Virus record (IMG/VR): IMGVR_UViG_3300020187_002434
Location: 1-64,000 of that record
DNA length: 64,000 nucleotides
Source: a virus
Strand: one strand, 5' to 3'
Below are positions 34,712 through 59,414 of the stretch, one piece after another (within the stretch, counting starts at the first letter, position 1; each line of letters begins with the position of its first letter). The notes beneath the pieces were generated by a model. It was given only the letters and a program-made list of their open reading frames with translations, did no database searches and was not told the origin of the DNA. Position numbers and translations under genes: made by a program.

Positions 34712-35434
34712 TTAATAACCTAAATAATCGGATAACTTTTTCATTAAGTCAACACTTTTACCTAAACTACCATCTATATTCTGTTCAGTAGCTCTATTCT
34801 GTGTCTCCTCTTCAATATTTTCTTCATACTTACCTTTATCGTCTTTATTTAAAAATAAATAAGCTCCGGGTGTTGAAGGTGACGAGACCAAATCAAAACA
34901 TATTAATTCAAAATCCTCTTGAACTTCATTTCTTTCTCCTTTCTTTACTAGTGAACCTACTCCACGAGAAGATACTCCCATAGTAACCCCTTGTCTCATT
35001 AAGTTGGCCGCTTGGTCTCCGGGACAAGATACGACACCTCTTTCATGAAATCCTGGTGAGGTTAGTAATTTAATCTTACCCATAAGAGTGTTACCTTCCC
35101 ACCACACATCTGTTATAAGATGAGAAACACGGTCTAAATCAATTAAAGACGATTCAGGGTGATTAAGTTCAGATATTGATAATCCCTTTTCAATTGCCTT
35201 TTTATAATTATCGGCTTCACGTCTTAATATTTTTTCAGGATATACTCTACCATTTCTATTTGGTGTATCAAATTTCTGTAAAGTCGCATAAAACTCAAAG
35301 GGTTTAGAGTGTTCTAGTTGTCCGTAAGATTCTTTAATTACTTTAGAGTTCCTACCATCCTTAGGGTTTATTGACCCAGCATCCCACTCAACTAAAATAC
35401 CTTTACCTGTATCGTTTGGTCCTAATATTTTCAT
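34712..35434 (-). CDS. Prohead core protease (T4 gp21-like, S78-type serine protease)
   Basis: This 240-residue protease digests the scaffold and trims capsid proteins during head maturation. It has the fold pattern FYATLQKFDTPNRNGRVYP, ISELNHPESSLIDLDRVSHL with catalytic His92, and VTMGVSSRGVGSL holding the nucleophile Ser (155 or 156). The T4 enzyme cuts after (L/I)-x-E. The acidic C-terminal tail is dispensable in relatives. A TATTTAT box lies 12 bases before its start. Confidence 0.88.
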   Translation of the reverse strand: MKILGPNDTGKGILVEWDAGSINPKDGRNSKVIKESYGQLEHSKPFEFYATLQKFDTPNRNGRVYPEKILRREADNYKKAIEKGLSISELNHPESSLIDLDRVSHLITDVWWEGNTLMGKIKLLTSPGFHERGVVSCPGDQAANLMRQGVTMGVSSRGVGSLVKKGERNEVQEDFELICFDLVSSPSTPGAYLFLNKDDKGKYEENIEEETQNRATEQNIDGSLGKSVDLMKKLSDYLGY

Positions 35435-35998: not shown

Positions 35999-36184
35999 AT
36001 GTTAATAATAGAGGTAAAAAATAAGAATATTGAATCAGCTTTGAAGAACTATAAATATAAAGTTTATAGAACTAAGCAGATGCAGAAAATCAATGAAAAT
36101 AAAGAGTATACGAAACCTTCGGTTGAAAGAAGGGAGGAGCGCAAAAAAGCTATCTACGTAAATAAAAAAAGAAACGACCTTTAA
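35999..36184 (+). CDS. rpsU: Ribosomal protein bS21 homologue
   Basis: This 61-residue basic protein fits bS21: LIIEVKNKNIESALKNYKYK, then a basic helix TKQMQKINENKEYTKPS followed by VERREERKKAIYVNKKR. The TKPSxxRR motif is typical of Bacteroidota S21. In the cell bS21 sits near the 3' end of 16S rRNA and the mRNA start-site channel, and in Bacteroidota it helps mask the anti-Shine-Dalgarno. A phage copy could exchange onto host ribosomes. It is a plus-strand gene alone inside the minus-strand head module. Phage-encoded bS21 genes are known from metagenomes. Confidence 0.82.
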   Translation: MLIIEVKNKNIESALKNYKYKVYRTKQMQKINENKEYTKPSVERREERKKAIYVNKKRNDL

Positions 36185-46668: not shown

Positions 46669-47112
46669 TTAAGAGTTAAGTTTTTTAAGTTTATCCCTAT
46701 ATTTTATCGAAGATTCAAAATCCTGAGATTTTATAGACTCATCTAATTTAGTTTTAATTTCCTCAATCTTTTCTTTATTCGACTCAATTTTTTTGATTTG
46801 GTCTCGTATTTTAGCGGCTGTCTCATAATCTTGTATTTCTACCGCATCTGATAATTGGGTTTTTAAAGTAAAAGTTTCATCTGTTTCTACAGTTGTTGGT
46901 TCATCCGTATATTGATATAACGTTGTGACTTGATATGTACCATCATCAGAAATAAATGTTTCTTTTTTCCATTTACCGTTTTTATCATCTCCGTGTTCTA
47001 CATTTTTTTTACCTTTAATATATAAAGGGTTTGATTTATATGACCCAATCCCGTCAAAAAGAGAGTCAAAATCTGAAAATAAGTCATTAAAATTAAAATT
47101 TCTACGTAACAT
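46669..47112 (-). CDS. Two-UVR-motif protein (McsA-like Clp adaptor candidate)
   Basis: This 147-residue protein has an N-terminal acidic-aromatic region and two tandem UVR motifs, residues 82-110 (DAVEIQDYETAAKIRDQIKK) and 117-145 (ESIKSQDFESSIKYRDKLKK). UVR motifs occur in UvrB/UvrC, in ClpC and in its adaptor McsA, where they mediate protein contacts. The gene is divergent to a phage ClpC-like unfoldase that itself has a UVR motif, so an adaptor that loads substrates on it is the best inference. The zinc fingers of McsA are absent. Confidence 0.7.
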   Translation of the reverse strand: MLRRNFNFNDLFSDFDSLFDGIGSYKSNPLYIKGKKNVEHGDDKNGKWKKETFISDDGTYQVTTLYQYTDEPTTVETDETFTLKTQLSDAVEIQDYETAAKIRDQIKKIESNKEKIEEIKTKLDESIKSQDFESSIKYRDKLKKLNS

Positions 47113-47191
47113 TTTGTTTTTTTATTATTAGTTTATTAAATTTACATTTTTATAGTTAATATCGTACCAACATATTAAATTAACTCTAAAA

Positions 47192-47236
47192 CTGACATTA
47201 TGTCAGGTAAAGTTTAAATGATATGTCACAATGTCA
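47192..47236. promoter_or_regulatory. Palindrome CTGACAT-T-ATGTCAG with further TGTCA half-sites (operator candidate)
   Basis: A perfect 7-bp inverted repeat with a one-base centre occupies 47192-47206. Two direct TGTCA copies follow at 47224-47228 and 47232-47236. The cluster ends five bases before the -33 TTG of the clp promoter in a 179-base divergent gap, so it could bind a regulator of both genes. Confidence 0.45.
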
Positions 47237-47240
47237 ACAC

Positions 47241-47272
47241 TTGATTTAATGGTATAATATATACTATATTTG
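47241..47272 (+). promoter_or_regulatory. Host-type promoter of the clp gene
   Basis: TTG (47241-47243), a 21-base spacer and TATATTTG (47265-47272) lie 20 bases before the ATG at 47292. Confidence 0.65.
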
Positions 47273-47291
47273 TATAAAATTATTTAAGATT

Positions 47292-49313
47292 ATGATAGAA
47301 TCGGTAGACCCAAACGAAAAAGGAGGAGGAAAAAAGAAAAAAGAAGTTAGTAACTCCAGAACTCCTGTTCTAGATAATTTTTCTAGAGATTTAATTAAGT
47401 TAGCGTCGGAAGGTAAATTAGACCCTGTTGTAGGTCGAGAAGTAGAAATAACAAGGATTGCACAAATTCTTTCTAGAAGAAAGAAAAACAATCCTATTAT
47501 TGTTGGTGAACCTGGATGTGGTAAAACTGCGATAGTGGAGGGTTTAGCTATGAGAATTTTTGAGGGAGATTGTCCTCAAAATCTGTGTGATAAAAGAATC
47601 GTATCTTTAGATATGACTTCTATAGTCGCGGGAACAAAATATAGGGGTCAGTTTGAAGAAAGAATGAAAGTTATTTTAGATGAACTCCATGATAACCATG
47701 ATATTGTAGTGTTTATTGATGAGATTCATACTATTATAGGTGCGGGTAATTCCTCAGGTTCATTAGACGCTTCCAATATATTTAAACCGGCACTAGCGAG
47801 GGGTGAAATTCAATGTATCGGAGCAACAACTCTTGATGAATACCGTGAAAATATAGAGAAAGACGGGGCTTTGGAGAGACGTTTTCAAAAGGTGATGGTT
47901 GATGGGTCTACACCTGAAGAAACTATGGTTATCTTAGAGAACTTAAAGTCTAGATATGAAGACCATCATAAAGTATCGTATAGTTATGAATCATTAGAGG
48001 CTTGTGTTTCTTTATCAGGAAGATATGTTAATGATAGAGAATTCCCTGATAAAGCGATTGATGTTATGGATGAGGTTGGGGCTAAGGCACAAATCAATGT
48101 TAAATTTCCTGAAATTATAGAGAAACTTAGAGAGGATGCTTTTAATATAAAAGAAAAGAAAATACAAGTCGTAAAAAGTCAGAGATATGAGGAAGCGGCT
48201 CAATTAAGAGATGAAGAGAAAAAGATTCTTTCTCGTCTTGAGTTTGAAAAAGAAAAATTCGAAAGTGATAAGGATGAGAAAAGAAAAGAGATTACCGAAG
48301 AAATGGTTTATGAGGTAGTTTCTACTATGACTAAAATTCCATTGTCTAAATTAAATGCGGATGACAAAGAATCTTTATTAAAGTTAGAAAGCAATCTTAA
48401 CAATTCTGTTATTGGACAAGAAGAGGCAGTCAAAACAATATCTAAGTCTATTAGAAGAAATAGGGTCGGTATTAAAGACCCTAATAGACCCATCGGTTCG
48501 TTTATCTTTTTAGGTTCTACAGGAATTGGTAAGACTCACTTAGCTAAACAATTAGCTAAAGAAATTTTCGGGGATGAGGAATCTTTGATTAGGGTAGATA
48601 TGTCAGAATATCAAGAGAAGTACTCAATGAGTAGACTTATAGGTTCTCCTCCAGGGTATGTGGGATATGACCAAGGAGGTCAATTAACTGAAGCAGTTAA
48701 AAATAAACCATATTCTGTGGTACTATTTGATGAGATTGAAAAGGCGAATAAAGATATTTTTTCAATTCTACTTCAAATGATGGATGATGGTCATTTAACA
48801 GATTCGTTTGGTCGTAAGATTAATTTTAAAAATTGTCTTATTATAATGACCTCAAACTTAGGGGTTAAGAAATTACAAGATTTCGGTACCGGTGTTGGGT
48901 TTGACACTAAGACTCGTATGTCAAGTAACGAAGAAATGAAAAAGTCCTTACTACAAAAGGAACTTAAAAATCACTTTACCCCTGAGTTTTTGAATCGTGT
49001 AGATGAAGTTGTAGTTTTTAATCCCCTTAAGGAAAACGAGGTGGAAAAAATTGTTGAAATTGAACTATCAAAACTTAATCGTAGATTAGTTAAGTTGGGT
49101 TATAAGGTATCCATTGACAATAAGGTTAAAAAGTTTTTGTCTGAGGTTGGGTTTGATGAGAAGTATGGAGCAAGACCTATAAAACGGGCAATTCAAGAAA
49201 AAATCGAGGATTTAATTTCAGAAGAAGTATTAAGAGGTAATATCGTAGAAGGTAAACCCTGTAAACTTAAAATGAAAGGTAAAGAAGAGGTTGTACTAAT
49301 AAAGGGGAGATAA
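47292..49313 (+). CDS. ClpC-like AAA+ unfoldase lacking the N-domain
   Basis: This 673-residue two-ring ATPase unfolds proteins for a protease. Domain D1 has Walker A GEPGCGKT (72-79), pore loop KYRG (116-119) and Walker B VVFIDE (139-144). The middle has a UVR-type helix QVVKSQRYEEAAQLRDEEKK (292-311). D2 has Walker A GSTGIGKT (408-415), pore loop GYVGYD (455-460), Walker B VVLFDE (476-481) and a VGF tripeptide (535-537), where ClpC binds ClpP. The ~150-residue N-terminal repeat domain is missing; only a Lys/Gly-rich start of ~25 residues remains. It probably docks to the host ClpP. The promoter is host-type, and a terminator stem wraps the stop codon. Confidence 0.9.
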   Translation: MIESVDPNEKGGGKKKKEVSNSRTPVLDNFSRDLIKLASEGKLDPVVGREVEITRIAQILSRRKKNNPIIVGEPGCGKTAIVEGLAMRIFEGDCPQNLCDKRIVSLDMTSIVAGTKYRGQFEERMKVILDELHDNHDIVVFIDEIHTIIGAGNSSGSLDASNIFKPALARGEIQCIGATTLDEYRENIEKDGALERRFQKVMVDGSTPEETMVILENLKSRYEDHHKVSYSYESLEACVSLSGRYVNDREFPDKAIDVMDEVGAKAQINVKFPEIIEKLREDAFNIKEKKIQVVKSQRYEEAAQLRDEEKKILSRLEFEKEKFESDKDEKRKEITEEMVYEVVSTMTKIPLSKLNADDKESLLKLESNLNNSVIGQEEAVKTISKSIRRNRVGIKDPNRPIGSFIFLGSTGIGKTHLAKQLAKEIFGDEESLIRVDMSEYQEKYSMSRLIGSPPGYVGYDQGGQLTEAVKNKPYSVVLFDEIEKANKDIFSILLQMMDDGHLTDSFGRKINFKNCLIIMTSNLGVKKLQDFGTGVGFDTKTRMSSNEEMKKSLLQKELKNHFTPEFLNRVDEVVVFNPLKENEVEKIVEIELSKLNRRLVKLGYKVSIDNKVKKFLSEVGFDEKYGARPIKRAIQEKIEDLISEEVLRGNIVEGKPCKLKMKGKEEVVLIKGR

Positions 49314-49326
49314 TTTCTCCCCTTTT
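49302..49326 (+). terminator. Rho-independent terminator overlapping the clp stop codon
   Basis: Stem AAGGGGAGA / TCTCCCCTT has the TAA stop in its loop (49311-49313) and ends in TTTT. Confidence 0.88.
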
Positions 49327-49327
49327 G

Positions 49328-49359
49328 TTTGGTTTAAAGTAAATAATTTAGTATATTTG
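49328..49359 (+). promoter_or_regulatory. Host-type promoter of the metallopeptidase gene
   Basis: TTTG (49328-49331), a 20-base spacer and TATATTTG (49352-49359) lie 18 bases before the ATG at 49378. Confidence 0.68.
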
Positions 49360-49377
49360 TATACAAATCAACCACAA

Positions 49378-50448
49378 ATGAATAACGAACAACTTAATCG
49401 TCTCAAAGAAGTACTTTCAATCCCAACTAAAACCTATAAGGAAGATGGAATGGTAGACTATATTATTAATGTTCTTGAGACGATTGACGGTGTAACGTAT
49501 TACAATGACCCAATGAATAACGTTTACGCCACTAAAGGTACATTACCTGATGGTGAGTTTTATCCGATGTTTGTTGCACATACTGATACGGTTCATGAAC
49601 TGGTTGAAGACATTGTTGTTGAGGAGGAGAATCTCGAAAAACCACCCACTTTTGGTCGAACGTTTACTGAAGAACTAAACTTATCTCTAAAGGGATACAC
49701 TCCACAAGGGAATCCAACGGGAATCGGTGGTGACGATAAATGTGGTGTTTTCTTGGCACTCGAACTCCTTCGCACTTTGTCACATGTAAAGGTCGGTCTT
49801 TTCGTATCTGAAGAGACCGGATGTCACGGCTCTAAGGAGTGTGATGTTGAGTTCCTCAAGGATGTGGGTTATGCGATTCAATTTGACGCACCTGGAAATC
49901 ATTTGGTTACCGAAGTTTGTTCGGGAATTCGTTTATTTGAGAGTAATGGTGAGTTCATTAAACGCATTACCCCCATCTTTGAAAACTCTATGGGTGTATC
50001 TCCTTACCTTCAGTCACACCCATATACTGATGTCTCACAAATTAAACAAAAAGGTGATTTTTCTTGTATCAACTTTTCTTGTGGTTATTACAACATGCAT
50101 TCAACATCTGAATTTGTAGTTGTAAAAGATGTTGAAGATGCCCTAAAACTCGCTATTGGTGTTGTAAATGAGCTTGGTTTGAATAAGTTTGGTTACACTT
50201 ACATCAAACCTACATACGATTACTACGGTCAAGGTAGTTTATTCACTAGTTATGATATTGAGGATGATGATTACGATTATGAATCAGTAGAATGGGAAGA
50301 AAGTGATAATCATTACTTCAACATCTCAGATGATTCAATTGAAATTGAAAGTAAAATTAATGGAAATACTGTCACTTTAAATATGAAGGATATGGCAGAT
50401 TTATATCTACTTATCCGTGAGCGTTTATTGGAAAACGAAGAGATTTAA
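49378..50448 (+). CDS. M20-like zinc aminopeptidase/dipeptidase
   Basis: The start is the ATG at 49378; a TTG further up lies inside the promoter. The 356-residue enzyme shows metal ligands and catalytic residues in family order: VAHTDTV (His68, Asp70), GIGGDDKCG (bridging Asp at 119 or 120), VSEETGCHG (catalytic Glu145, ligand Glu146), QFDAPG (Asp170) and YYNMHSTSEF (final His). M20/peptidase-T-like enzymes cleave short peptides released by ATP-dependent proteases. Next to the Clp unfoldase and tmRNA it would complete peptide recycling. It has an acidic C-terminal tail (EDDDYDYESVEWEE). Confidence 0.82.
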   Translation: MNNEQLNRLKEVLSIPTKTYKEDGMVDYIINVLETIDGVTYYNDPMNNVYATKGTLPDGEFYPMFVAHTDTVHELVEDIVVEEENLEKPPTFGRTFTEELNLSLKGYTPQGNPTGIGGDDKCGVFLALELLRTLSHVKVGLFVSEETGCHGSKECDVEFLKDVGYAIQFDAPGNHLVTEVCSGIRLFESNGEFIKRITPIFENSMGVSPYLQSHPYTDVSQIKQKGDFSCINFSCGYYNMHSTSEFVVVKDVEDALKLAIGVVNELGLNKFGYTYIKPTYDYYGQGSLFTSYDIEDDDYDYESVEWEESDNHYFNISDDSIEIESKINGNTVTLNMKDMADLYLLIRERLLENEEI

Positions 50449-52307
50449 AACGGGTCAAAAAGTGTGTAGTTGTTCAACAATTTAATTATTGTTGTCAACT
50501 TAGCACTACCTTTTTTTATTTCATTATCTTTATTAATTATTTCAAAATTAATTTTAGAGTTTTTTGGGTTAACCCCTGTAAATATTATAGAATCTTCACT
50601 TTCTGACGATTTAATTGCGTGAGGAGTATTAAGACCAAATTTATTATTTATATACTTTAATATTCTTCTATACTCATTAACGTCTGACACTACATTATCA
50701 TCAGATTCGACATCCGATAAAACATTTTCCAACAGATTTGTCATATCACTGTTAAACGAGTCATTAAACACATCCAAATCCTGATATTCATTTACACTAT
50801 CCATAAAGTATGTGTCTAAGTCAATATTTTGTTGGATTACGTTCTCCAACACTTGCTCTGTAGACAAGTCTTTATTGTAATCTAAATTATCCTCGTAGAT
50901 ATCAATAAGTTTATCAATACTGATTTTATATTGACCAAAACAACCTTCATCGTCAACCTTTGTTAATCCTATTTCATCATAAAGATTACATATTTCATCT
51001 TCAATATATTTTATTACACCTTGGTGTATAGACCTGTCCTCGGCTTCGGAATACAAATAACCAAAATCTTCATATAATTTTGGTAATTTATTTTCTATAA
51101 ATTTCGATACTTTTACGTCCCAATCACCGTCAGGTTTAATTTCACTACCATCAAACGCCTCTAACAACTCAGGTTCTATTATCTCAACAATAGAACGTAA
51201 TATATCTATATGTTCAGGTGTTAATACATAAAGTGGGTAACCTTCCATCATATCGTCATTAAATCTTGATGTCTCATAAAAAAAATCTCCATTAGGGTTT
51301 TCATATGACCATAGATAATAACCTATCGCATCTTCACCGACCTCATCCTCCATAAAGTCCAAATAATTCTTAAGTTCATTACTGAAATTAAAAATTGCGT
51401 TCTCACCATCAAACCTATCAAAGAAGTGAGATGTTAATGATTCATACATAGATGTCTTAGGGTTATTTTTTACTTTCTTTAGAGTTTCGTAGTCATCCCC
51501 ACGTTCCGTCAGTTTATTAATCTCTTCCTTTATTGGTGCAAATCTTTCTAATAAAAAACTAAATTTTTCCCCGTGGTCCTGTTGATTGTATACCTCAGGT
51601 GTGCCGTTACCATGAGGTACAAGTAATGCCATTTTACCGTATGTTCTGTCTGAAGATTTTTTATCTATAATGTAATATAGTTTACCTCTTGATGTATATC
51701 TGTTAAAATAGTCGTCGTTATCAGTACTGGTGGTACACCATTTAGTACTTGCTCCGTAGTAACATGATGATTTATGTGATAATGGACGTATTATTAAAAA
51801 TCTATCGTTTTCATAAACTCTATCTACTTCTTTTTTTACTTCTTTTTCAGTCCTTATCTCATCTAAATAATCTTCGTACTTATTAACAAAACGAAATAAA
51901 TCGTGAATGGTATCAAACGAGGTAATGTCTTTTGGTTTTGACCTTATCTTTTTTTCTGTACTTTCACTACTAAAATTTCCTTCTATATTTAAGATATTAA
52001 ACATATTATCAACCTTTTCAGGTGATAATCTTTCAACAATATCATGATACTTTTTAATATTGACCCATATAATACTTGCGACTGAAATTGGGTCCCCTCC
52101 TCCTACAACTGAAGAAGTGGGTTTATTAATTTCATCTATAAATTTTTTAACACCCCATTCAGAATACTTTTTAGTTAAGCTTGGGTCGTTATTTATAATT
52201 ATTTCGGCATATTTTATCGCCTCGTCACCTAACGGTTCAAGTTGATTTCGGAACTTATCTATTATACGCTCCTTTTTACCTTCTAATAATAGAGTTATAA
52301 ACTTCAT
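50445..52307 (-). CDS. Large unknown phage protein with KWCTTS motif and possible head-targeting leader
   Basis: This 620-residue protein has no assigned family. The leader MKFITLLLEGKKERIIDKF holds an L-L-E-G site. The central core (FLIIRPLSHKSSCYYGASTK, then WCTTSTDNDDYFNRYTSRGK and LYYIIDK) looks strongly conserved and I have seen this pattern in large phages, often with an internal His/Cys/Trp site that could be catalytic. The flanks are acidic and helical. It overlaps the upstream gene (TAATG) and converges on the peptidase gene. Confidence 0.5.
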   Translation of the reverse strand: MKFITLLLEGKKERIIDKFRNQLEPLGDEAIKYAEIIINNDPSLTKKYSEWGVKKFIDEINKPTSSVVGGGDPISVASIIWVNIKKYHDIVERLSPEKVDNMFNILNIEGNFSSESTEKKIRSKPKDITSFDTIHDLFRFVNKYEDYLDEIRTEKEVKKEVDRVYENDRFLIIRPLSHKSSCYYGASTKWCTTSTDNDDYFNRYTSRGKLYYIIDKKSSDRTYGKMALLVPHGNGTPEVYNQQDHGEKFSFLLERFAPIKEEINKLTERGDDYETLKKVKNNPKTSMYESLTSHFFDRFDGENAIFNFSNELKNYLDFMEDEVGEDAIGYYLWSYENPNGDFFYETSRFNDDMMEGYPLYVLTPEHIDILRSIVEIIEPELLEAFDGSEIKPDGDWDVKVSKFIENKLPKLYEDFGYLYSEAEDRSIHQGVIKYIEDEICNLYDEIGLTKVDDEGCFGQYKISIDKLIDIYEDNLDYNKDLSTEQVLENVIQQNIDLDTYFMDSVNEYQDLDVFNDSFNSDMTNLLENVLSDVESDDNVVSDVNEYRRILKYINNKFGLNTPHAIKSSESEDSIIFTGVNPKNSKINFEIINKDNEIKKGSAKLTTIIKLLNNYTLFDPF

Positions 52308-53731
52308 TAGTCATATGCTGCACATCCTATACCACCACTGTCTTCAAAAAATCCGACACCACCACCGCTCTTAATAAAATTAAAAATCTTACGGTTTCTC
52401 CCTCCTGTTGGTTGTGTATCACTTGTTATTTTAATATCCCATTCACCAATTTTATCATCAGTACCAGGTTCACTCTTTTCTGTATCATAATCAAATTTAA
52501 CAGCCAATTGTATTATACAATATTTATACTGTTCATATTCATTTGGTGAACTGTGTGGTTCTTGCCCATTAAATGTTCTGTCACCCTCTTGTTTAAATGA
52601 ATTAGGGTCACCACCACCATCAGAAAATTGATTTGGACTTGGTGGATTTGGTCCTGATGAACCGTCACCATTTCTACCATTAGAATTTAAAGTGACATTT
52701 ACTGTACTTATGTCGGGTACTAAAGAACTTAATTCATTAACTATGTAACTATATACACTTTCAGCTCTCTCTTGAGAAAGTTCTTTAAAATTCATTTGCT
52801 GAGCCTCTCCTGTATTTCTGTATCTTGACGCTGATGTCGCAATTACAAATGGGTAGTTTTCACCGTCTACTTTATTCGCCACTGAAACTTTAGCATCTGG
52901 AAATTGTTTTAGAAAATCGGTAATATCACCTTTAAATTTTTTAGTCCACTCAACGACGCCTTGACCCACTCTTGTTGAGTTGTTAGGGAATGGTTCACCT
53001 TCAGTTTTCTTGTCTATTGAGTGATTAACTTTAACCGCGGGTATTACAGTTTCATCTTTTTCTTCTTTTGATAACTTACCAGGTATTAGACGTATTGATT
53101 TAATATTTTTTCTACATTCACCTATATCAGGAGTACTTTCATCTTTCTTTTCAGGGTATTTTTTAGTACACCAATCGATAAAATATTGAATGAACCCTTC
53201 TTTATTTTCTTCTGTCATAGGAGGAACATCGGCACCTGATTGTCTTTTGTCTTTTCCTTTTACACCCTTACTACCAGTTTTACAAGCGTTAAGTGATGAC
53301 TCATTAAAGTCCGGATTTAACGAATCTTCGCCGAGAGGGAATCCGAATTTTACTTGACCTAAACGGTCACCGTTTTGGTCTTCAATATTTCTTAACTCTT
53401 TTACAGAGTTACGATATTGGCTTTCATCTTTAAAATATGATTTAGGGATGTAATTGTAACTACTGTATAGATATTGTCCATCAACACCTCTTCTTGTTGT
53501 TGTTTTTTCCGGTAACTTTTCAGACTCTAATTCTGAAACAGGGAATCTATATTTGAAATAATATCTTGGTGAACAACTGAAATCATCACCAGCACTTTCC
53601 CAATAAATTTTACTCTTTTCATCTAATAATGAGACAAACACTCTTTCTATATTGTCAGTTTGTTCTAAAACTAACTCCAACCCCATAATTTGTCTCATGC
53701 GGTTAACTTCATTTATAATATTACGCTTCAT
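52307..53731 (-). CDS. Unknown protein with degenerate OmpA-like segment
   Basis: This 474-residue protein starts MKRNIINEVNRMRQIMGLEL, with an I-N-E site. Residues ~310-345 (RYRNTGEAQQMNFKELSQER, then AESVYSYIVNEL) resemble the NxxLSxxRAxxV helix of OmpA-like peptidoglycan-binding domains. Pro/Gly/Asn-rich linkers surround it. There is no signal peptide, so it is not a classic envelope protein; it may be a virion protein that meets peptidoglycan during injection. The TATTTAT box is at 14 bases. Confidence 0.45.
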   Translation of the reverse strand: MKRNIINEVNRMRQIMGLELVLEQTDNIERVFVSLLDEKSKIYWESAGDDFSCSPRYYFKYRFPVSELESEKLPEKTTTRRGVDGQYLYSSYNYIPKSYFKDESQYRNSVKELRNIEDQNGDRLGQVKFGFPLGEDSLNPDFNESSLNACKTGSKGVKGKDKRQSGADVPPMTEENKEGFIQYFIDWCTKKYPEKKDESTPDIGECRKNIKSIRLIPGKLSKEEKDETVIPAVKVNHSIDKKTEGEPFPNNSTRVGQGVVEWTKKFKGDITDFLKQFPDAKVSVANKVDGENYPFVIATSASRYRNTGEAQQMNFKELSQERAESVYSYIVNELSSLVPDISTVNVTLNSNGRNGDGSSGPNPPSPNQFSDGGGDPNSFKQEGDRTFNGQEPHSSPNEYEQYKYCIIQLAVKFDYDTEKSEPGTDDKIGEWDIKITSDTQPTGGRNRKIFNFIKSGGGVGFFEDSGGIGCAAYD

Positions 53732-53745
53732 TGTAATTTTTCTTT

Positions 53746-53752
53746 ATAAATA
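53746..53752 (-). promoter_or_regulatory. TATTTAT box (candidate late element)
   Basis: On the minus strand AACTATTTATAAAGAAAAA lies 14 bases before the ATG at 53731. Confidence 0.42.
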
Positions 53753-53753
53753 G

Positions 53754-53784
53754 TTTGTATAAAGAAAAACTTTCACTATCTTTA
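53754..53784 (+). promoter_or_regulatory. Host-type promoter, -7 variant (TTTG-N19-TATCTTTA)
   Basis: TTTG (53754-53757) is followed at 19 bases by TATCTTTA (53777-53784). The predicted start of transcription falls about at the ATG at 53790, so the mRNA may be nearly leaderless. Confidence 0.45.
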
Positions 53785-53789
53785 TGTTT

Positions 53790-54353
53790 ATGAAGAATCT
53801 ATTACCCCTCCTTTTTTGTTTGATTTCATTAACGACCACATCTCAAATTACATGGGAAGGTGCTAAATGTTATTATATTGATGATAAGGGTAATGAGGTT
53901 GAAGTTTCATGTGAAGGATATATCCCAACACCAGTACCTCAGGTAAATATTGATTCTCTTTGTTGGGAAATGGAAAAACGTTTTGTAAATACATTAAACG
54001 AATGGAGAGTAAATCATGGATTGAATGGATTAGAATACGATGATGACATGGAATCTCTACTGACTGTGCCTTGGAATGAAAATCAGGTAAAAACAGGTAA
54101 AGTTGGTCATGGTGAAGGGTATAACAGTTTCACAAATCGGATTGATTGGGCGGGTTTTGATACTTGTGGTGAATGTTGTGGGTCTAATCATAGGTCGGAT
54201 GTTAATAATGTTTCTCAGTTTTTTTTACAGTATCAAAAAAGTCCCCCACACTGGAAAATTTTAACAAATAGTAAGTATAACTATATTTCTGTATCAGTTC
54301 TTTATGACCGAGAAACAAATACTTATTATTCTGTAGTAAATGTTCGAAAGTGA
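53790..54353 (+). CDS. Exported CAP (SCP/YkwD-like) domain protein
   Basis: The mature start is taken at ATG 53790 (an ATG six bases earlier overlaps the promoter). The first ~18 residues (MKNLLPLLFCLISLTTTSQ) form a signal peptide. A CAP fold follows: FVNTLNEWRVNHGLNGLEY, GHGEGYNSFTNRIDWAG, then SQFFLQYQKSPPHWKILTNS and YYSVVNV, in family order. CAP proteins bind lipids or carbohydrates or act as proteases in the periplasm or outside. A phage-encoded copy may alter the host envelope. Cys pairs (CGECC) suggest an oxidising location. Confidence 0.72.
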   Translation: MKNLLPLLFCLISLTTTSQITWEGAKCYYIDDKGNEVEVSCEGYIPTPVPQVNIDSLCWEMEKRFVNTLNEWRVNHGLNGLEYDDDMESLLTVPWNENQVKTGKVGHGEGYNSFTNRIDWAGFDTCGECCGSNHRSDVNNVSQFFLQYQKSPPHWKILTNSKYNYISVSVLYDRETNTYYSVVNVRK

Positions 54354-54384
54354 TTTGATTGTTTAAGATTTATATTTATATTTG
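54354..54384 (+). promoter_or_regulatory. Host-type promoter of the tmRNA
   Basis: TTTG (54354-54357), a 19-base spacer and TATATTTG (54377-54384) lie ~20 bases before the tmRNA 5' end, leaving a short leader for RNase P. Confidence 0.65.
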
Positions 54385-54403
54385 TAGTGTTCTTTGAAAA
54401 TAT

Positions 54404-54790
54404 GGGGGTGTTTTATGGATTTGACCGGTATGGTCAGGTGTAGAGTGCACGTAGTGAGAGGATACCTATCACTTTAATCTACGGTTTCAATTTGTAACAG
54501 GCGAAACTTTCGCAAAACTTCAGGCTGTCGGTTTACTCCGCACTGAAGAGGTTTACGCTGCCTAAGGCATCGTTTACCACGGGTCGGTCAGGACGTTAAC
54601 CTTGGAACAGAAGTCCGTTGTAGTGGTGGAAAAATGACTGAACCCTAAATCGAGTCATACATCTATTGTCAGTGGAGGATGTTAAAATTCAACTGAATAT
54701 TTCGGATTATTAAGAATTAATAATGAACTAAACGTGTAGGACTCTATATTTGAAATATTTGGGACCTGGGTTCGAGCCCCAGCACCTCCA
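54404..54790 (+). ncRNA. ssrA: Transfer-messenger RNA (tmRNA, ssrA)
   Basis: The 5' end GGGGGTG pairs with CACCTCC (54783-54789) to form the 7-bp acceptor with one G-U pair. The T-arm is CTGGG-TTCGAGC-CCCAG (54766-54782), and the 5' part continues with ATGGATTTGACCGG as in tmRNA D-like regions. CCA is not encoded. The resume codon is GGC at 54500, giving the tag GETFAKLQAV followed by GLLRTEEVYAA and a TAA at 54563. Bacteroidota tags usually start GET or GEN and end near ten residues, so this one is ~21 residues with a YAA end. It rescues stalled ribosomes and marks the product for proteolysis. Confidence 0.95.
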
Positions 54791-54795
54791 CAAAT

Positions 54796-54829
54796 AAATC
54801 CCCTATTGTTTTGGCAGTAGGGGATTTTT
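54796..54829 (+). terminator. tmRNA terminator with next gene's -33 element in its loop
   Basis: Stem AAATCCCCTA / TAGGGGATTT with a 12-base loop and a T tract. The TTTG of the following promoter (54810-54813) lies within the loop. Confidence 0.87.
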
Positions 54830-54841
54830 GACTTATATTTG
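54810..54841 (+). promoter_or_regulatory. Host-type promoter of the DUF6011 gene
   Basis: TTTG (54810-54813), a 20-base spacer and TATATTTG (54834-54841) precede the ATG at 54872 by 30 bases. Confidence 0.65.
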
Positions 54842-54871
54842 TATCACAATCACCACATAAACAATATTAAT

Positions 54872-55459
54872 ATGACTCAAGAACAAGTAATCGAAGAAGT
54901 GCAGAACTACAACGGAACCAACAATTTTATGAACTCACTCAAAAGAGGTCTTAATAAGTTTAACTCACTGACCGATAATCAAACCGCAGCAGCTATTCGT
55001 GTTATCGAGGGTGCTCGTCGTCATGAACAGGCTCAACAGCGTTTGAATATCACTTTGGTTGGTGATACCATCAAGATTGGTCGTAAGATTGCATTGGGTA
55101 TTAAAGAAGAGTATGGTCTTGAGTTTCACCCCATCCTTATCGATGTAACTGCGGTTACGGGTATGACTGACCGAGCACTTCGGGTCAAAGGCAAGTTGAC
55201 GAAAGAAAACGGAGGTGTATGTCGTTGTTGCGCTAAAACCCTTACTGATGATGTTTCTAAGTTGACAGGTATCGGTCCTGTGTGTTCTAAGTATGTTGGT
55301 GTTGCTCATCCTCGTAGCGCTTACGACACTGTCGCAATCGAGAATTATAAAAAGGATATGTCTCGAAAAATTGATGAGATTGGTGAGTTTGAGTTTTGGA
55401 TTCCTAAAAGGGCGATTGTTAAGTGGAATGGTATGGGAGGAGTGATGGTGAAGATGTGA
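54872..55459 (+). CDS. DUF6011-type zinc-binding protein
   Basis: The start is ATG 54872 (MTQEQVIEEVQNYNGTNNF); a TTG at 54839 lies in the promoter. The 195-residue protein has an N-terminal helical region (LNKFNSLTDNQTAAAIRVIE) and a C-terminal CRCCAKTLTDDVSKLTGIGP segment followed by VCSKYVG. Its four Cys and GIGPVC signature are the DUF6011 pattern seen in many phage and plasmid proteins. It may bind nucleic acid. Function is unknown. Its G+C content and codon use look higher than in the neighbours, as in the peptidase gene. Confidence 0.72.
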   Translation: MTQEQVIEEVQNYNGTNNFMNSLKRGLNKFNSLTDNQTAAAIRVIEGARRHEQAQQRLNITLVGDTIKIGRKIALGIKEEYGLEFHPILIDVTAVTGMTDRALRVKGKLTKENGGVCRCCAKTLTDDVSKLTGIGPVCSKYVGVAHPRSAYDTVAIENYKKDMSRKIDEIGEFEFWIPKRAIVKWNGMGGVMVKM

Positions 55460-56417: not shown

Positions 56418-59414
56418 ATGAATTTTACTTTTTTTAATAAGGCACGCCGTGTGCTTTTAATACCTTTAATGCTCTTGTTTTCAGTAGTATTAAGGGCTCA
56501 ATGTGACGTTTTTATAGAACAGGGTTCTGTAGTCGTCACTGATAATGGTAGTGGTGTCAAGTTTCAATTTGACGTTACAAACAATTCGGGTAGTGAATGG
56601 GAAGGGGACGTACTTAAGATGTATTGGTCACTTAATTCAAGTGCACCAATATGGACCATAGATTATACCTCAAACAACAATGTTGGACCCTTACCTCCTG
56701 GTCAGACTAGGACAATAACAACCCCTTGGTTCGACATTCCAAATCTCCCTTCATGGTTTCCTGAAGACCCAGGTCCTGGTGGAGTAAATGATTTATCGTG
56801 GGAAGAGTCTATGGAATGGGCGTATTATGGTTTATCTTTCCCTTTTGATGGGGCTTGGTCACAATTTAATCTTAGGTTAGGTAGTTGTGGGTTAGCTGAT
56901 GGCGCTTGGGTATATAACTCAGACGGAACACCATACTACGGACCTTTTAATACTGATTGTCCTGATGTAAATAATGATGCGTTTTGTGATTGTGATGTTA
57001 ATTTCCTTGGATTTGACCCTGAAACATATGACGTAAGTATTGAAGTAGTATCACATTGGAACTGTGGCACTTCTTTAAATACGGTGGGTCAGTCGGGACA
57101 AATGGATTATGTAAATATGGTTCAAATAGGTGCACACGTACCTGGTTGGGATTATGAATGGGGTTGTACCGCATCTGAATATCATTTAGGATGGACATTT
57201 GATAATCCTGTATCATTTGCTGAGTATTACGCGGGTGATACAATAAATTATAATATGTTTGCTGACGATACATTTTATGATGATTGTTTCCAAAGTATCT
57301 TAGAGTCTGATACATTAACTTCATGTTTGGAAGTTGTATTATGGCAAATAAACTATTCGGAAACTGCGATTATTGGTGAAATTGATGGTGGTTGGGCCCA
57401 GACGTGTGGATTATGTGCGGACCAAACACAGTTTTATCCTGACATATCAATGGAATTAAATTCTATTAATGTATGTGATGCACCACCCCCTATTTACCCT
57501 GGTTGTACTGACCCTTTAGCAGAAAACTTTAATGGTAATGCGGGGTATGATGACGGGACTTGTACTTTTGCACCTGTATACGGTTGTCAAGACCCTATCG
57601 CTTGTAATTATAATCAACAAGCAACCGAAAATGATGACTCATGTATATATTGTGATACTCCAGAGGGAGAAGAATTATGTAATGAATATCATGGCGATAG
57701 CACTTATTGGGAGTTTTATAGTAATCTATTCGACTGTGATGATGAAGTAATATATACTCCTGACGCAGGTGGATATGTTTCATTTGTAAATGCAGTGTGT
57801 GATGACGGGATAGTTTCTAACGAAATTAGTATAATAGTAGTTAACCCTGATACGGGTAATTTTAATTCAAATGACACATTATTTGTGTATTGTGTAGAAG
57901 TACCTGAATTAGGTCTTGATACTTGTTTAAATGGTAATTTAAACGGTACTGATTGGATTGAACCTGGTGGGGGTCAGTTAATATGGACTATTAATGTACC
58001 TGATTTTATAACTCAACTAACAATTAATGTATATGATGTTGAAGGTGAGATTGATGAATATTCATATAACAATACGTTCTTATACTTAAATAATATAAGT
58101 GACCCCGATGTATGTCTTGTTTTAGGATGTACAGACCCAATAGCGGAAAATTATAATCCGTTAGCAACTGAGGATGATGGAAGTTGTGAATATATGGTTG
58201 ATTTATCATTAGATAGTATAACTATAAACGAATACTGTGACGGATTTACCCCATACTGGGTTCCTACGTTACATCTAAACAATCTAACCAATCCCGCGAT
58301 AAATGAATACTGTATTAAAGTTCAAGTCTTAGGACAAACAAACGACACTATTTGTTTTAATGCGATGGGTACAACAATAAACTCATTCGGTGATATCTCT
58401 ATTGAGTGGCCTAACCCCATATACTCATATGGTGTTGTTAGTGTACACGTTTTAGACGTAAATGGTGAGAGTCCTAACTCATGGGAAAATTTCGGAGAAG
58501 ATGATAATATTAGTAATAATATACTTGTCCTTACAATCGGAGGTTCCGGAATTAATTGCAATGTTGCGGGATGTATCGACGATACTGCTAATAACTATAA
58601 TCCTGACGCAAATGTGGATGATGGTAGTTGTACTTACGATATATTCGGATGTACCGATGAAAGCGCTAATAATTACAATCCCAATGCGAATTTAGACGAT
58701 GGTACATGTACGTATGATATTTATGGTTGTACAGATGAAGAAGCAAATAACTACAACTCAACAGCTAACGTGGACGATGGGTCTTGTACTTATGACGTTT
58801 TCGGCTGTACAGACTCAACCGCAAATAATTATAACCTCTTAGCTACAGTCGATGACGGTTCTTGTGAATATGATGTATTTGGGTGTACTGATGAAAGTGC
58901 TAACAATTATAATTCACTTGCTAACGTGGATGATGGTAGTTGTACTTACGATATATTAGGGTGTACCGATTTAAACGCTAACAATTATAATATGTTCGCA
59001 AATGTAAATGATGGGTCATGTGAATATGACGTGTTTGGATGTACTAACATGGACGCATTAAATTATAATTTTGAAGCGACGATAGAAGATGGTACTTGTG
59101 TTTTTCCTAGTCCTTGTGATGAATTCGACGGTCAGGCATTTGCACCTAACGCATTTAGTCCTAATAATGACGGTTTAAACGATTCTTGGGGGGTAATAAC
59201 CGACGAAGAGTGTTGGAACACATGGGAAGTATCTATTTTCAATAGATGGGGTCAAGTGGTCTTTAAAATCGATAATCCTAATGGAAGATGGGATGGAAGT
59301 TTTAATAATGGTGGGTATTACGTACAAGACGGAGTTTACGCTTACACAATTAGGGCAGTGGCATGGAATTTGGAGGTCTTGGATACGAGTGGTTATATAA
59401 CCGTTCTCAGGTAA
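56418..59414 (+). CDS. Secreted Cys-repeat protein with T9SS (gliding-motility type) C-terminal domain
   Basis: This 998-residue protein has a signal peptide (residues 1-27, ARRVLLIPLMLLFSVVLRAQ), a large N-terminal beta region, three scattered and seven tandem GCTDxxANNYNxxAxxDDGS-type repeats (24 residues each, one Cys pair apiece; residues ~720-900), and a C-terminal domain of ~95 residues. That domain runs FAPNAFSPNNDGLNDSWGV, FNRWGQVVF, then WDGSFNNGGYYVQDGVYAY. It is the gliding-motility-associated (CHU_C, type B) signal for type IX secretion. The product should be exported by Sec and then by the host's T9SS to the cell surface. Such proteins are known for Bacteroidota, not usually for phages. 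Confidence 0.85.
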   Translation: MNFTFFNKARRVLLIPLMLLFSVVLRAQCDVFIEQGSVVVTDNGSGVKFQFDVTNNSGSEWEGDVLKMYWSLNSSAPIWTIDYTSNNNVGPLPPGQTRTITTPWFDIPNLPSWFPEDPGPGGVNDLSWEESMEWAYYGLSFPFDGAWSQFNLRLGSCGLADGAWVYNSDGTPYYGPFNTDCPDVNNDAFCDCDVNFLGFDPETYDVSIEVVSHWNCGTSLNTVGQSGQMDYVNMVQIGAHVPGWDYEWGCTASEYHLGWTFDNPVSFAEYYAGDTINYNMFADDTFYDDCFQSILESDTLTSCLEVVLWQINYSETAIIGEIDGGWAQTCGLCADQTQFYPDISMELNSINVCDAPPPIYPGCTDPLAENFNGNAGYDDGTCTFAPVYGCQDPIACNYNQQATENDDSCIYCDTPEGEELCNEYHGDSTYWEFYSNLFDCDDEVIYTPDAGGYVSFVNAVCDDGIVSNEISIIVVNPDTGNFNSNDTLFVYCVEVPELGLDTCLNGNLNGTDWIEPGGGQLIWTINVPDFITQLTINVYDVEGEIDEYSYNNTFLYLNNISDPDVCLVLGCTDPIAENYNPLATEDDGSCEYMVDLSLDSITINEYCDGFTPYWVPTLHLNNLTNPAINEYCIKVQVLGQTNDTICFNAMGTTINSFGDISIEWPNPIYSYGVVSVHVLDVNGESPNSWENFGEDDNISNNILVLTIGGSGINCNVAGCIDDTANNYNPDANVDDGSCTYDIFGCTDESANNYNPNANLDDGTCTYDIYGCTDEEANNYNSTANVDDGSCTYDVFGCTDSTANNYNLLATVDDGSCEYDVFGCTDESANNYNSLANVDDGSCTYDILGCTDLNANNYNMFANVNDGSCEYDVFGCTNMDALNYNFEATIEDGTCVFPSPCDEFDGQAFAPNAFSPNNDGLNDSWGVITDEECWNTWEVSIFNRWGQVVFKIDNPNGRWDGSFNNGGYYVQDGVYAYTIRAVAWNLEVLDTSGYITVLR
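58569..59104 (+). repeat. Seven tandem ~72-nt coding repeats
   Basis: Seven consecutive units encode GCTDESANNYNPNANLDDGT-type segments. The amino acids are far more conserved than the DNA, showing old duplications kept by selection. Asp/Asn residues in each unit suggest calcium binding. Confidence 0.85.

What the first reader, a model, noticed from the sequence alone, without database searches (positions are those of the whole stretch)
46669..55459. Phage-encoded translation-rescue and protein-turnover module
Within 9 kb lie a UVR-motif protein, a ClpC-like unfoldase without its N-domain, an M20-like peptidase, a tmRNA and a zinc protein. The last four each have a host-type promoter or terminator of their own. 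A bS21 homologue lies at 35999. Known biology links tmRNA tagging to Clp proteolysis and peptide cleanup. The inference is that the phage carries its own version of the pathway, perhaps with a private tag read by a private unfoldase that borrows host ClpP. I know of no described phage system with this combination.
Basis: partly seen in the sequence, partly recalled or inferred. Interest (0 to 1): 0.87.

Follow-up and report, generated by a model that had tools for sequence, protein, structure and literature searches.

The report
Phage-run protein tagging and shredding system
A lineage of T4-like viruses thought to infect Bacteroidota carries its own ribosome-rescue RNA, which encodes a long tag unlike the tags of Bacteroidota, beside its own protein unfoldase and often its own ClpP protease, suggesting that the virus runs a private version of a basic bacterial quality-control pathway.

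Summary
The window is part of a 115-kb T4-like phage record with a UVR protein, an N-domain-less ClpC, a PepT/M42-like peptidase, a tmRNA (Rfam 97 bits; missed by ARAGORN) and a DUF6011 protein. The linkage is real in relatives: of 80 viral loci with this ClpC, 77 have the peptidase near it and 55 a tmRNA downstream; of loci with at least 9 kb held downstream only one lacks it. The UVR gene is less constant (41 of 80). (1) All 58 phage tags read are 21-22 residues and form one family (window: GETFAKLQAVGLLRTEEVYAA); all 27 tags read from Bacteroidota genomes, the presumed host phylum, are 9-10 residues ending Y-[AR]-[LM]-A-A. (2) The phage encodes its own ClpP, outside the window at 95.3 kb, with catalytic Ser/His/Asp intact, so it need not borrow the host's. 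I read this as phage-run trans-translation with a private degron feeding phage ClpC-ClpP. Recognition of the tag by ClpC is inferred, not shown. Precedents exist for phage tmRNAs, phage Clp genes, tmRNA plus ClpX in one phage, and a private tag in Mesoplasma.

The parts
46669..47112 (-). UVR-motif protein (147 aa), candidate ClpC partner; divergent from clpC
   Evidence: Pfam UVR 52 bits; homologue within 2.5 kb upstream of clpC in 41 of 80 loci; R103, D104, I106, E133, I136, R139 invariant in 33 aligned; AlphaFold model: three-stranded sheet plus UVR helices, mean pLDDT 72
47265..47272 (+). flavobacterial-type -7 promoter box TATATTTG before clpC
   Evidence: consensus recalled; 54 TANNTTTG on the + strand of the window, so a lone match is weak evidence
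47292..49313 (+). ClpC-type double-AAA unfoldase without N-domain (673 aa)
   Evidence: Walker A, Walker B and pore-loop motifs kept in 81 of 81 aligned
48894..48902 (+). ClpP-docking tripeptide VGF of ClpC (residues 535-537)
   Evidence: xGF in 81 of 81 phage ClpC (VGF 54, IGF 25, LGF 1, MGF 1); VGF or IGF at the same place in the 12 bacterial ClpC printed
49301..49325 (+). terminator-like hairpin at the end of clpC
49357..50448 (+). PepT/M42-like metallopeptidase (363 aa listed from TTG; a later ATG start is likely)
   Evidence: candidate metal ligands H75 D77 D126 E152 E153 D177 H248 invariant in 19 of 19 aligned (ligand roles recalled); within 6 kb downstream of clpC in 77 of 80 loci
54377..54384 (+). 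flavobacterial-type -7 promoter box TATATTTG before tmRNA
54404..54793 (+). tmRNA gene (ssrA), one piece
   Evidence: Rfam RF00023 97.1 bits, full model; 5' GGG and 3' UCCA give the G3:U70 alanine identity pair (by eye; rule recalled)
54500..54565 (+). tag reading frame GETFAKLQAVGLLRTEEVYAA plus stop
   Evidence: 58 of 58 phage tags read belong to one 21-22 aa family
54797..54829 (+). terminator-like hairpin after tmRNA
   Evidence: read by eye; not in the scan, whose loop limit is 8 bases
54839..55459 (+). DUF6011 zinc-type protein, neighbour after the tmRNA
   Evidence: Pfam DUF6011 37.7 bits; homologue found in the nearest loci
35999..36184 (+). bS21 ribosomal protein homologue
   Evidence: Pfam Ribosomal_S21 42.1 bits; opposite strand to the head genes, as in the published bS21 phages
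34712..35434 (-). separate head maturation protease, so the ClpP at 95 kb is not needed as the head protease
   Evidence: phrog_207, 150 bits

Best explanation
The phage runs its own trans-translation and disposal line. Its tmRNA, probably charged by host AlaRS and delivered by host SmpB, enters ribosomes stalled on broken mRNA and appends a 21-22 residue phage tag instead of the 9-10 residue YALAA-type tag of Bacteroidota. The phage ClpC, which lacks the N-domain used by host adaptors, takes the tagged chain through its two AAA rings into ClpP (the phage's own here, perhaps host ClpP in relatives without one), and the PepT/M42-like peptidase trims the products. Where present, the UVR protein probably binds or regulates ClpC through its UVR motifs. 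Shown: the genes, their linkage, intact catalytic and docking motifs, and a conserved tag unlike those of Bacteroidota. Inferred: charging, SmpB use, recognition of the tag by ClpC, ClpC-ClpP docking, peptide clean-up, and the host phylum.
For: tmRNA over the Rfam cut-off in 53 of 80 ClpC records (32 of 50, 21 of 30) plus 2 more seen by tag HMM (L014, L046): 55 of 80. The tag lay downstream on the same strand in all 49 loci found by the HMM, 2.0-6.4 kb from clpC. Of 20 capsid-relative records checked, 6 have a tmRNA and all 6 have full clpC; 0 of 11 without a clpC match have a tmRNA. Tags: 58 of 58 are 21-22 aa, carry G-L at positions 11-12 and end in A, 46 in VA; median dN/dS 0.43. Bacteroidota genomes: 27 of 27 tags read are 9-10 aa ending Y-[AR]-[LM]-A-A. 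ClpC: [VILM]GF loop in 81 of 81; 30 sampled phage ClpC form one group, 100/100. ClpP in G000 and 12 other records of 48; Ser/His/Asp intact in 10 of 10 read, grouped apart from bacterial ClpP; a separate head protease exists.
Against: Nothing here shows ClpC reading the tag. The tag still ends in Ala, so host ClpX might read it. ClpP was found in 13 of 48 records and in 6 of the 10 of 130 kb or more. SmpB was found in 3 of 48, so the front end leans on the host. UVR is absent from about half the loci. L070/G064 has ClpC and ClpP but no tmRNA over the cut-off; capsid-side records G097 (6.2 kb held after clpC) and G090 (2.6 kb) have clpC and no tmRNA over the cut-off. Among 11 named records, ClpC without a tmRNA over the cut-off occurs in four (LR745206, LR756502, GAP32, LR756501) and a tmRNA without a ClpC match in two (Lak-B1, LR756511), so elsewhere the two genes part company.
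Confidence: 0.57

Rival explanations
1. Ribosome rescue and proteolysis are separate. The tmRNA keeps ribosomes free late in infection, and its odd tag exists to avoid or slow degradation by host ClpXP, not to address phage ClpC. ClpC-ClpP acts on other substrates such as host or defence proteins.
For: Tags lack the Y-A-[LM]-A-A type ending. Four named phages have ClpC without a tmRNA over the cut-off, two of them with ClpP (LR745206, LR756502). L070 and G097 have ClpC without a tmRNA over the cut-off.
Against: Mere evasion would not need 21-22 conserved residues with an invariant G-L. In this lineage tmRNA is tightly linked to clpC and absent from the 11 capsid-relative records without a clpC match, though many of these are fragments.
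Confidence: 0.28
2. ClpC with the UVR protein is the functional unit (McsA-like or MecA-like control of ClpC) for removing host proteins; tmRNA and peptidase are merely neighbours in a host-takeover region.
For: The UVR gene lies upstream of and divergent from clpC in 41 of 80 loci. ClpC itself carries a UVR motif.
Against: UVR is the least constant member, while peptidase (77 of 80) and tmRNA (55 of 80, most misses being short contigs) stay. McsA membership fails: 34.9 bits against a cut-off of 210.
Confidence: 0.1
3. The tmRNA is a non-functional captured host gene, or a decoy that only titrates SmpB.
For: ARAGORN reports a tmRNA in only 13 of 58, one of these apparently spurious, so the gene is divergent. 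A mycobacteriophage tmRNA reduced to its tRNA-like domain may titrate SmpB (PMC4131195, passages read).
Against: Full-length model matches of 50-130 bits; the tag frame is open in 58 of 58 and changes less in replaced than in silent sites; G3:U70 in 57 of 58 (46 in the count, 11 more by eye).
Confidence: 0.05

Closest known systems
Bacterial tmRNA-SmpB trans-translation with ssrA-tag proteolysis (Bacteroidota)
   Same: Same RNA family (RF00023), same G3:U70 pair, mostly the same Gly resume codon (GGC in 53 of 58 phage tags; 24 of 27 bacterial tags also start with Gly)
   Different: Tag is 21-22 aa, not 9-10, with a different sequence; mostly no SmpB gene found; the gene sits near an N-domain-less ClpC
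Mesoplasma florum tmRNA tag and Mf-Lon protease (PMC9097571, passages read)
   Same: A tag specifically recognised by its cognate protease, hence largely orthogonal to the E. coli system
   Different: Cellular, and Lon rather than ClpC-ClpP; recognition is tested there, not here
bS21-encoding Bacteroidetes phages (PMC9723584; abstract, passages and one section read)
   Same: Same layout: bS21 on the opposite strand among terminase, portal, prohead protease and capsid genes; Clp protease and chaperones noted
   Different: The word tmRNA does not occur in the main text held; no tag is described in the passages read. I did not compare the window with those genomes
Far-T4 phages of Bacteroidetes (PMC4360716, PMC7198788; word searches and passages)
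   Same: T4-like capsid lineage linked to Bacteroidota
   Different: None of the words tmRNA, Clp, peptidase or protease in PMC4360716; in PMC7198788 tmRNA occurs once, in an ARAGORN reference title
Chryseobacterium phage MA9V-3 (PMC13120357, passages read; record PV245944)
   Same: Bacteroidota phage annotated with a tmRNA and a Clp unfoldase gene within 5 kb; ARAGORN gives the tag GNVIDINKYVAKLEVAA, whose start resembles the GNVI tags here
   Different: ClpX label instead of ClpC (depositors' label, not tested), 17-residue tag, ARAGORN calls it permuted, no relation of the phages was tested
Other phage tmRNAs: mycobacteriophages and Bacillus phage G (PMC4131195), huge phages with tmRNA and SmpB (PMC7162821); passages read
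   Same: Phage-encoded tmRNA; the huge-phage record LR756504 holds tmRNA, ClpP match 11 kb away and ClpC match 254 kb away
   Different: No dedicated ClpC-ClpP or conserved tag family is described in the passages read. Candidate tags differ: ANPEFAMAA in LR756511, AKLNITNNELQVA in phage G and APVEMAVAA in LR756504, all less certain readings

Membership tests
tmRNA (RF00023) | Covariance-model score over the curated cut-off, whole model | tested here: met
   97.1 bits against 47, positions 1-374 of 374
tmRNA (RF00023) | G3:U70 alanine identity pair in the tRNA-like domain (rule recalled) | tested here: met
   Window by eye. One search counted 46 of 58; 11 of its 12 misses had ends shifted by 2-3 bases and show it by eye; L199 does not
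tmRNA (RF00023) | Short open tag frame with a stop after a resume codon | tested here: met
   58 of 58. ARAGORN gives the same whole tag in 8 of the 13 it reports, a later start in the same frame in 4, and an unrelated permuted call in 1
tmRNA (RF00023) | SmpB partner, alanylation, tagging activity | not testable with these tools
   SmpB gene in 3 of 48 records, not in G000; host SmpB assumed
Canonical bacterial ssrA degron | C-terminal [LM]-A-A tag read by ClpX (rule recalled) | tested here: not met
   0 of 58 phage tags end in LAA or MAA; 46 end in VA, 3 in YAA
ClpC (HSP100) | Two AAA modules, UVR-bearing middle domain, D2-small | tested here: met
   Pfam rows; aligns along S. aureus ClpC 150-800
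ClpC (HSP100) | ClpP-docking xGF loop | tested here: met
   81 of 81
ClpC (HSP100) | N-terminal Clp_N domain | tested here: not met
   None among the 25 of 43 Pfam rows shown; alignment begins at ClpC residue 150; ORFs 576-719 aa, the shortest cut by a contig end, against a bacterial median of 857 stop to stop
ClpP peptidase | Full-length match and Ser-His-Asp triad | tested here: met
   G000 95346-95870, 194.5 bits against 20.2; triad in 10 of 10 phage ClpP read of 13 found. Below NCBIfam equivalog cut-offs (248 against 361)
McsA (UVR adaptor) | NCBIfam McsA score over the cut-off | tested here: not met
   34.9 bits against 210, UVR part only
bS21 / Far-T4 phages of Bacteroidota | T4-like capsid, portal and terminase with bS21 on the opposite strand among them | tested here: met
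   phrog_138, phrog_213 and phrog_2 matches; bS21 at 35999 +. No tree with the published genomes was made, and the host was not tested

The most novel reading that the evidence does not exclude
A lineage of Bacteroidota phages carries an orthogonal degron pathway: a phage tmRNA writes a private, conserved 21-22 residue degron that only the phage's N-domain-less ClpC reads, feeding the phage's own ClpP and peptidase, so that products of stalled, perhaps bS21-substituted, ribosomes are recycled under phage control and out of reach of host ClpXP and its adaptors.
Probability: 0.47. Interest if true: 0.86.

Novelty: new variant of a known kind. Interest (0 to 1): 0.77.

Why it matters
It would be a case of a virus replacing the tag, the unfoldase and the peptidase of bacterial trans-translation at once, kept as a linked module in many environmental phages. 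It makes a direct test possible: is the tag a private degron for the phage unfoldase? If so it offers an orthogonal degradation tag, a way to ask how ClpC selects substrates without an N-domain, and a reason why phages carry tmRNAs. ARAGORN misses most of these tmRNAs (45 of 58 here), which may be why tmRNA is not mentioned in the passages read on these phages.

Tried and rejected
Host-ClpP-only model: rejected for this phage once ClpP was found in the same record. ClpP as head protease: unlikely, another head maturation protease is at 34712-35434, although the ClpP also matches PHROGs head-protease families of the ClpP fold (best 122 bits) far below its ClpP models. UVR as obligatory tag adaptor: weakened, 41 of 80 (search window 2.5 kb upstream; L061 and L065 hold under 0.9 kb upstream). 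UVR protein as McsA: rejected. Fold search of the UVR model: no match at E<=0.001. Tag as copy of a phage protein segment: the tag HMM found no hit below E 6 outside tmRNA tags among six-frame segments of 25 aa or more in the window, L167-L169 and 80 loci. Megablast of 18 kb of the window in named phages: no match. tmRNA blastn: only a 48-base 3'-end match in Flavobacterium phages. Sigma-70 promoter scan: no excess (37 against 41.4 expected). Named phages immuto, RM378 and Mel-JY01: no ClpC match and no tmRNA over the cut-off.

Limits of counts: tags were read in 57 of the 59 relatives' tmRNAs over the cut-off (G029 and G050 had no locus) plus the window; one of the 57 (G081, ClpC 100% identical) is nearly the same phage; 52 nucleotide tags are unique. 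SmpB and ClpP were sought in 48 of 101 virus records, mostly the longer ones. The peptidase alignment used the window and 18 of the 20 loci whose ORF was over 850 bases. One of 23 bacterial ClpP loci (L406) was dropped by a motif filter before the ClpP tree; the ClpC tree used 30 of 81 phage and 28 of 80 bacterial proteins, some named rows being long branches. The 30 bacterial loci chosen for tmRNA gave 29 genomes (L272 not held), 2 of which had no tmRNA over the cut-off. The named records were scored with stricter filters. Literature absence rests on searches of an open-access library only.
Full report
What the window is. The window is bases 1-64000 of a 115,240-base IMG/VR virus record. Head genes are T4-like: capsid phrog_138, portal phrog_213, terminase phrog_2 and a head maturation protease phrog_207. 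A bS21 gene lies among them on the opposite strand. This is the layout reported for bS21-encoding Bacteroidetes phages (PMC9723584; abstract, passages and one section read). The nearest capsid matches in named phages are LR756508 (45%), Microcystis phage Mel-JY01 (42%), Flavobacterium phage immuto (39%) and Rhodothermus phage RM378 (35%), each over 53-67% of the protein. The host itself was not identified; Bacteroidota is inferred from this layout, the ClpC relatives and the promoter type.

Observation. The tmRNA scores 97.1 bits over the whole RF00023 model, while ARAGORN reports nothing. The ClpC-like protein has both AAA modules, a UVR motif and the D2-small domain, but no Clp_N among the rows shown; its match to S. 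aureus ClpC starts at residue 150 of that protein. The peptidase is closest to peptidase T in the PDB (E 2.3e-5) and to M42 in Pfam. The finding leaves out three genes between peptidase and tmRNA: two on the minus strand and a CAP-domain protein.

Linkage in relatives. By HMM the peptidase lies within 6 kb downstream in 77 of 80; the three misses hold 0-56 bases after clpC. It is on the same strand as clpC in the nearest relatives and on the other strand in most others. The UVR gene is within 2.5 kb upstream in 41 of 80. tmRNA over the Rfam cut-off is in 32 of 50 of these records and 21 of the other 30. A tag HMM adds L014 and L046, so 55 of 80. Of the 25 without, 24 hold at most about 5.5 kb after clpC; L070 holds 10 kb and has none over the cut-off. 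In the 49 loci found by the tag HMM the tag is downstream of clpC on the same strand, 2.0-6.4 kb away. Six loci with at least 9 kb downstream were missed by that HMM; five of these have a tmRNA by Rfam. From the capsid side, 20 of 80 records were checked: 8 have full clpC, one an edge fragment, 11 no match; tmRNA is in 6, all with full clpC, and in 0 of the 11. The other two with full clpC, G090 and G097, hold 2.6 and 6.2 kb after it and have no tmRNA over the cut-off. Many of these records are fragments.

Outside the lineage the link is looser. Of 11 named records examined, six have a ClpC-like match and four a tmRNA over the cut-off; two have both (LR756508, LR756504), four ClpC only (LR745206, LR756502, Cronobacter phage GAP32, LR756501), two tmRNA only (Lak-B1, LR756511), three neither (immuto, RM378, Mel-JY01). 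LR756504 also has ClpP matches, one 11 kb from its tmRNA.

The tag. I read tags from the window and 57 of the 59 relatives' tmRNAs over the cut-off. All 58 are 21 (50) or 22 (8) residues, carry G-L at positions 11-12 and end in Ala; 46 end in Val-Ala. Consensus: G-[NED]-[VT]-[LFI]-x-K-[ML]-x-x-[LVI]-G-L-[ILV]-R-x-x-E-V-x-V-A. ARAGORN reports a tmRNA in 13 of 58 and gives the same whole tag in eight, a later start in the same frame in four, and an unrelated permuted call in one. Median pairwise dN/dS is 0.43 over 1008 of 1326 pairs; the value is rough for so short a frame, and RNA constraint may also act. In Bacteroidota genomes with tmRNA over the cut-off (27 of 29) the tags are 9-10 residues: 24 read automatically (13 GENNYALAA) and three read by eye, two of them from Crocinitomicaceae and one from Crocinitomix (DNNNSYALAA, DNDYNYALAA, DNTSYRLAA). 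No phage tag has that ending. The GGC resume codon (53 of 58) is shared with most of those bacterial tags, so a host origin of the RNA is likely (inference). Tag-like segments occur nowhere else in the phage sequences searched.

Own ClpP. The record encodes a ClpP at 95346-95870, outside the window (223-residue ORF used, L168:11211-11882). It matches full-length ClpP models, best NF011091 at 248 bits but under its equivalog cut-off of 361. The Ser-His-Asp triad is intact in 10 of 10 phage ClpP read (13 were found); these with huge phage LR745206 form a group apart from 22 bacterial and 6 other named-phage ClpP on well-supported branches. ClpP was found in 13 of 48 records searched. Of the ten records of 130 kb or more, six have it (G002, G007, G014, G053, G062, G100) and four do not (G008, G067, G072, G073). 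The ClpC docking loop is [VILM]GF in 81 of 81, also where no ClpP was found, so these may use host ClpP (inference). The phage ClpC sampled (30) form one group against 28 bacterial and 5 named-phage ClpC, 100/100. SmpB is in 3 of 48 records and not in G000; in G029 and G036 it lies within 0.9 kb of the tmRNA.

Peptidase and UVR protein. The candidate metal ligands H75, D77, D126, E152, E153, D177 and H248 are invariant in 19 of 19 peptidases aligned (window and 18 of 20 loci with long ORFs). The UVR protein has two UVR motifs and a variable N-terminal part; the model (pLDDT 72) shows a three-stranded sheet and UVR helices and matches nothing in the PDB at E<=0.001.

Mechanism. I commit to a phage-run trans-translation line with a private degron read by phage ClpC. 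For: linkage within the lineage, private conserved tag, intact ClpC and ClpP motifs. Against: no test of recognition; patchy ClpP, SmpB and UVR; named phages where ClpC and tmRNA occur apart; and a few relatives with ClpC but no tmRNA found. The main rival, a tag that simply escapes host ClpXP, cannot be excluded by sequence.

What is known. Phage tmRNAs are known (PMC4131195 and PMC7162821, passages). Phage ClpP, ClpA and ClpX are noted in jumbo phages (PMC7824862, passages). Clp protease is noted in bS21 phages without the word tmRNA in the main text. A tmRNA and an annotated ClpX gene lie within 5 kb in Chryseobacterium phage MA9V-3, with a 17-residue tag GNVIDINKYVAKLEVAA. A private tag specifically recognised by its protease is known from Mesoplasma florum Lon (PMC9097571, passages). 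I found no report of this phage tag family or of tmRNA with ClpC and ClpP as one phage system (searches; open-access library only). Hence: a new variant of a known kind, with interest high because the central claim is directly testable.

Noticed in passing
window 56418-59414 +: Phage-encoded 998-aa protein with an apparent signal peptide, repeated NYNP..DDGTC-type units and a C-terminal CHU_C type IX secretion domain (Pfam 62.3 bits); homologue in L007 (58%). A virus coding for a T9SS-exported protein seems unusual.
   Followed up: no
window 53784-54353 +: CAP-domain (PF00188) protein with an apparent signal peptide just before the tmRNA; also in L007 (61%).
   Followed up: no
window 50445-52307 -: 620-aa protein between peptidase and tmRNA, detectably related in many of the 80 loci, with a SCYYGASTKWCTTS stretch; no Pfam match at E<=0.1, PHROGs of unknown function.
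   Followed up: no
L168:12825-13652 - (record 96825-97652): Protein with DnaJ-like CxxCxGxG-type repeats close to the phage clpP gene (by eye); possible chaperone co-factor.
   Followed up: no
L167 and L168 (record 82.6-95.2 kb): Twelve tRNA genes; clpP begins just after a tRNA-Ser(tga).
   Followed up: partly
G029:C1:31633-32049 and G036:C1:83981-84397: Two relatives carry an SmpB gene within 0.9 kb of their tmRNA; a third (G053) has SmpB far away.
   Followed up: partly
L409:767-1125 - (PV245944): Tag of Chryseobacterium phage MA9V-3 (GNVIDINKYVAKLEVAA by ARAGORN, reported as permuted) begins like the tags here; shared origin or convergence is open.
   Followed up: partly
58 phage tmRNAs: ARAGORN reports nothing in 45 of 58, so annotation pipelines based on it would miss most of this family.
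   Followed up: yes
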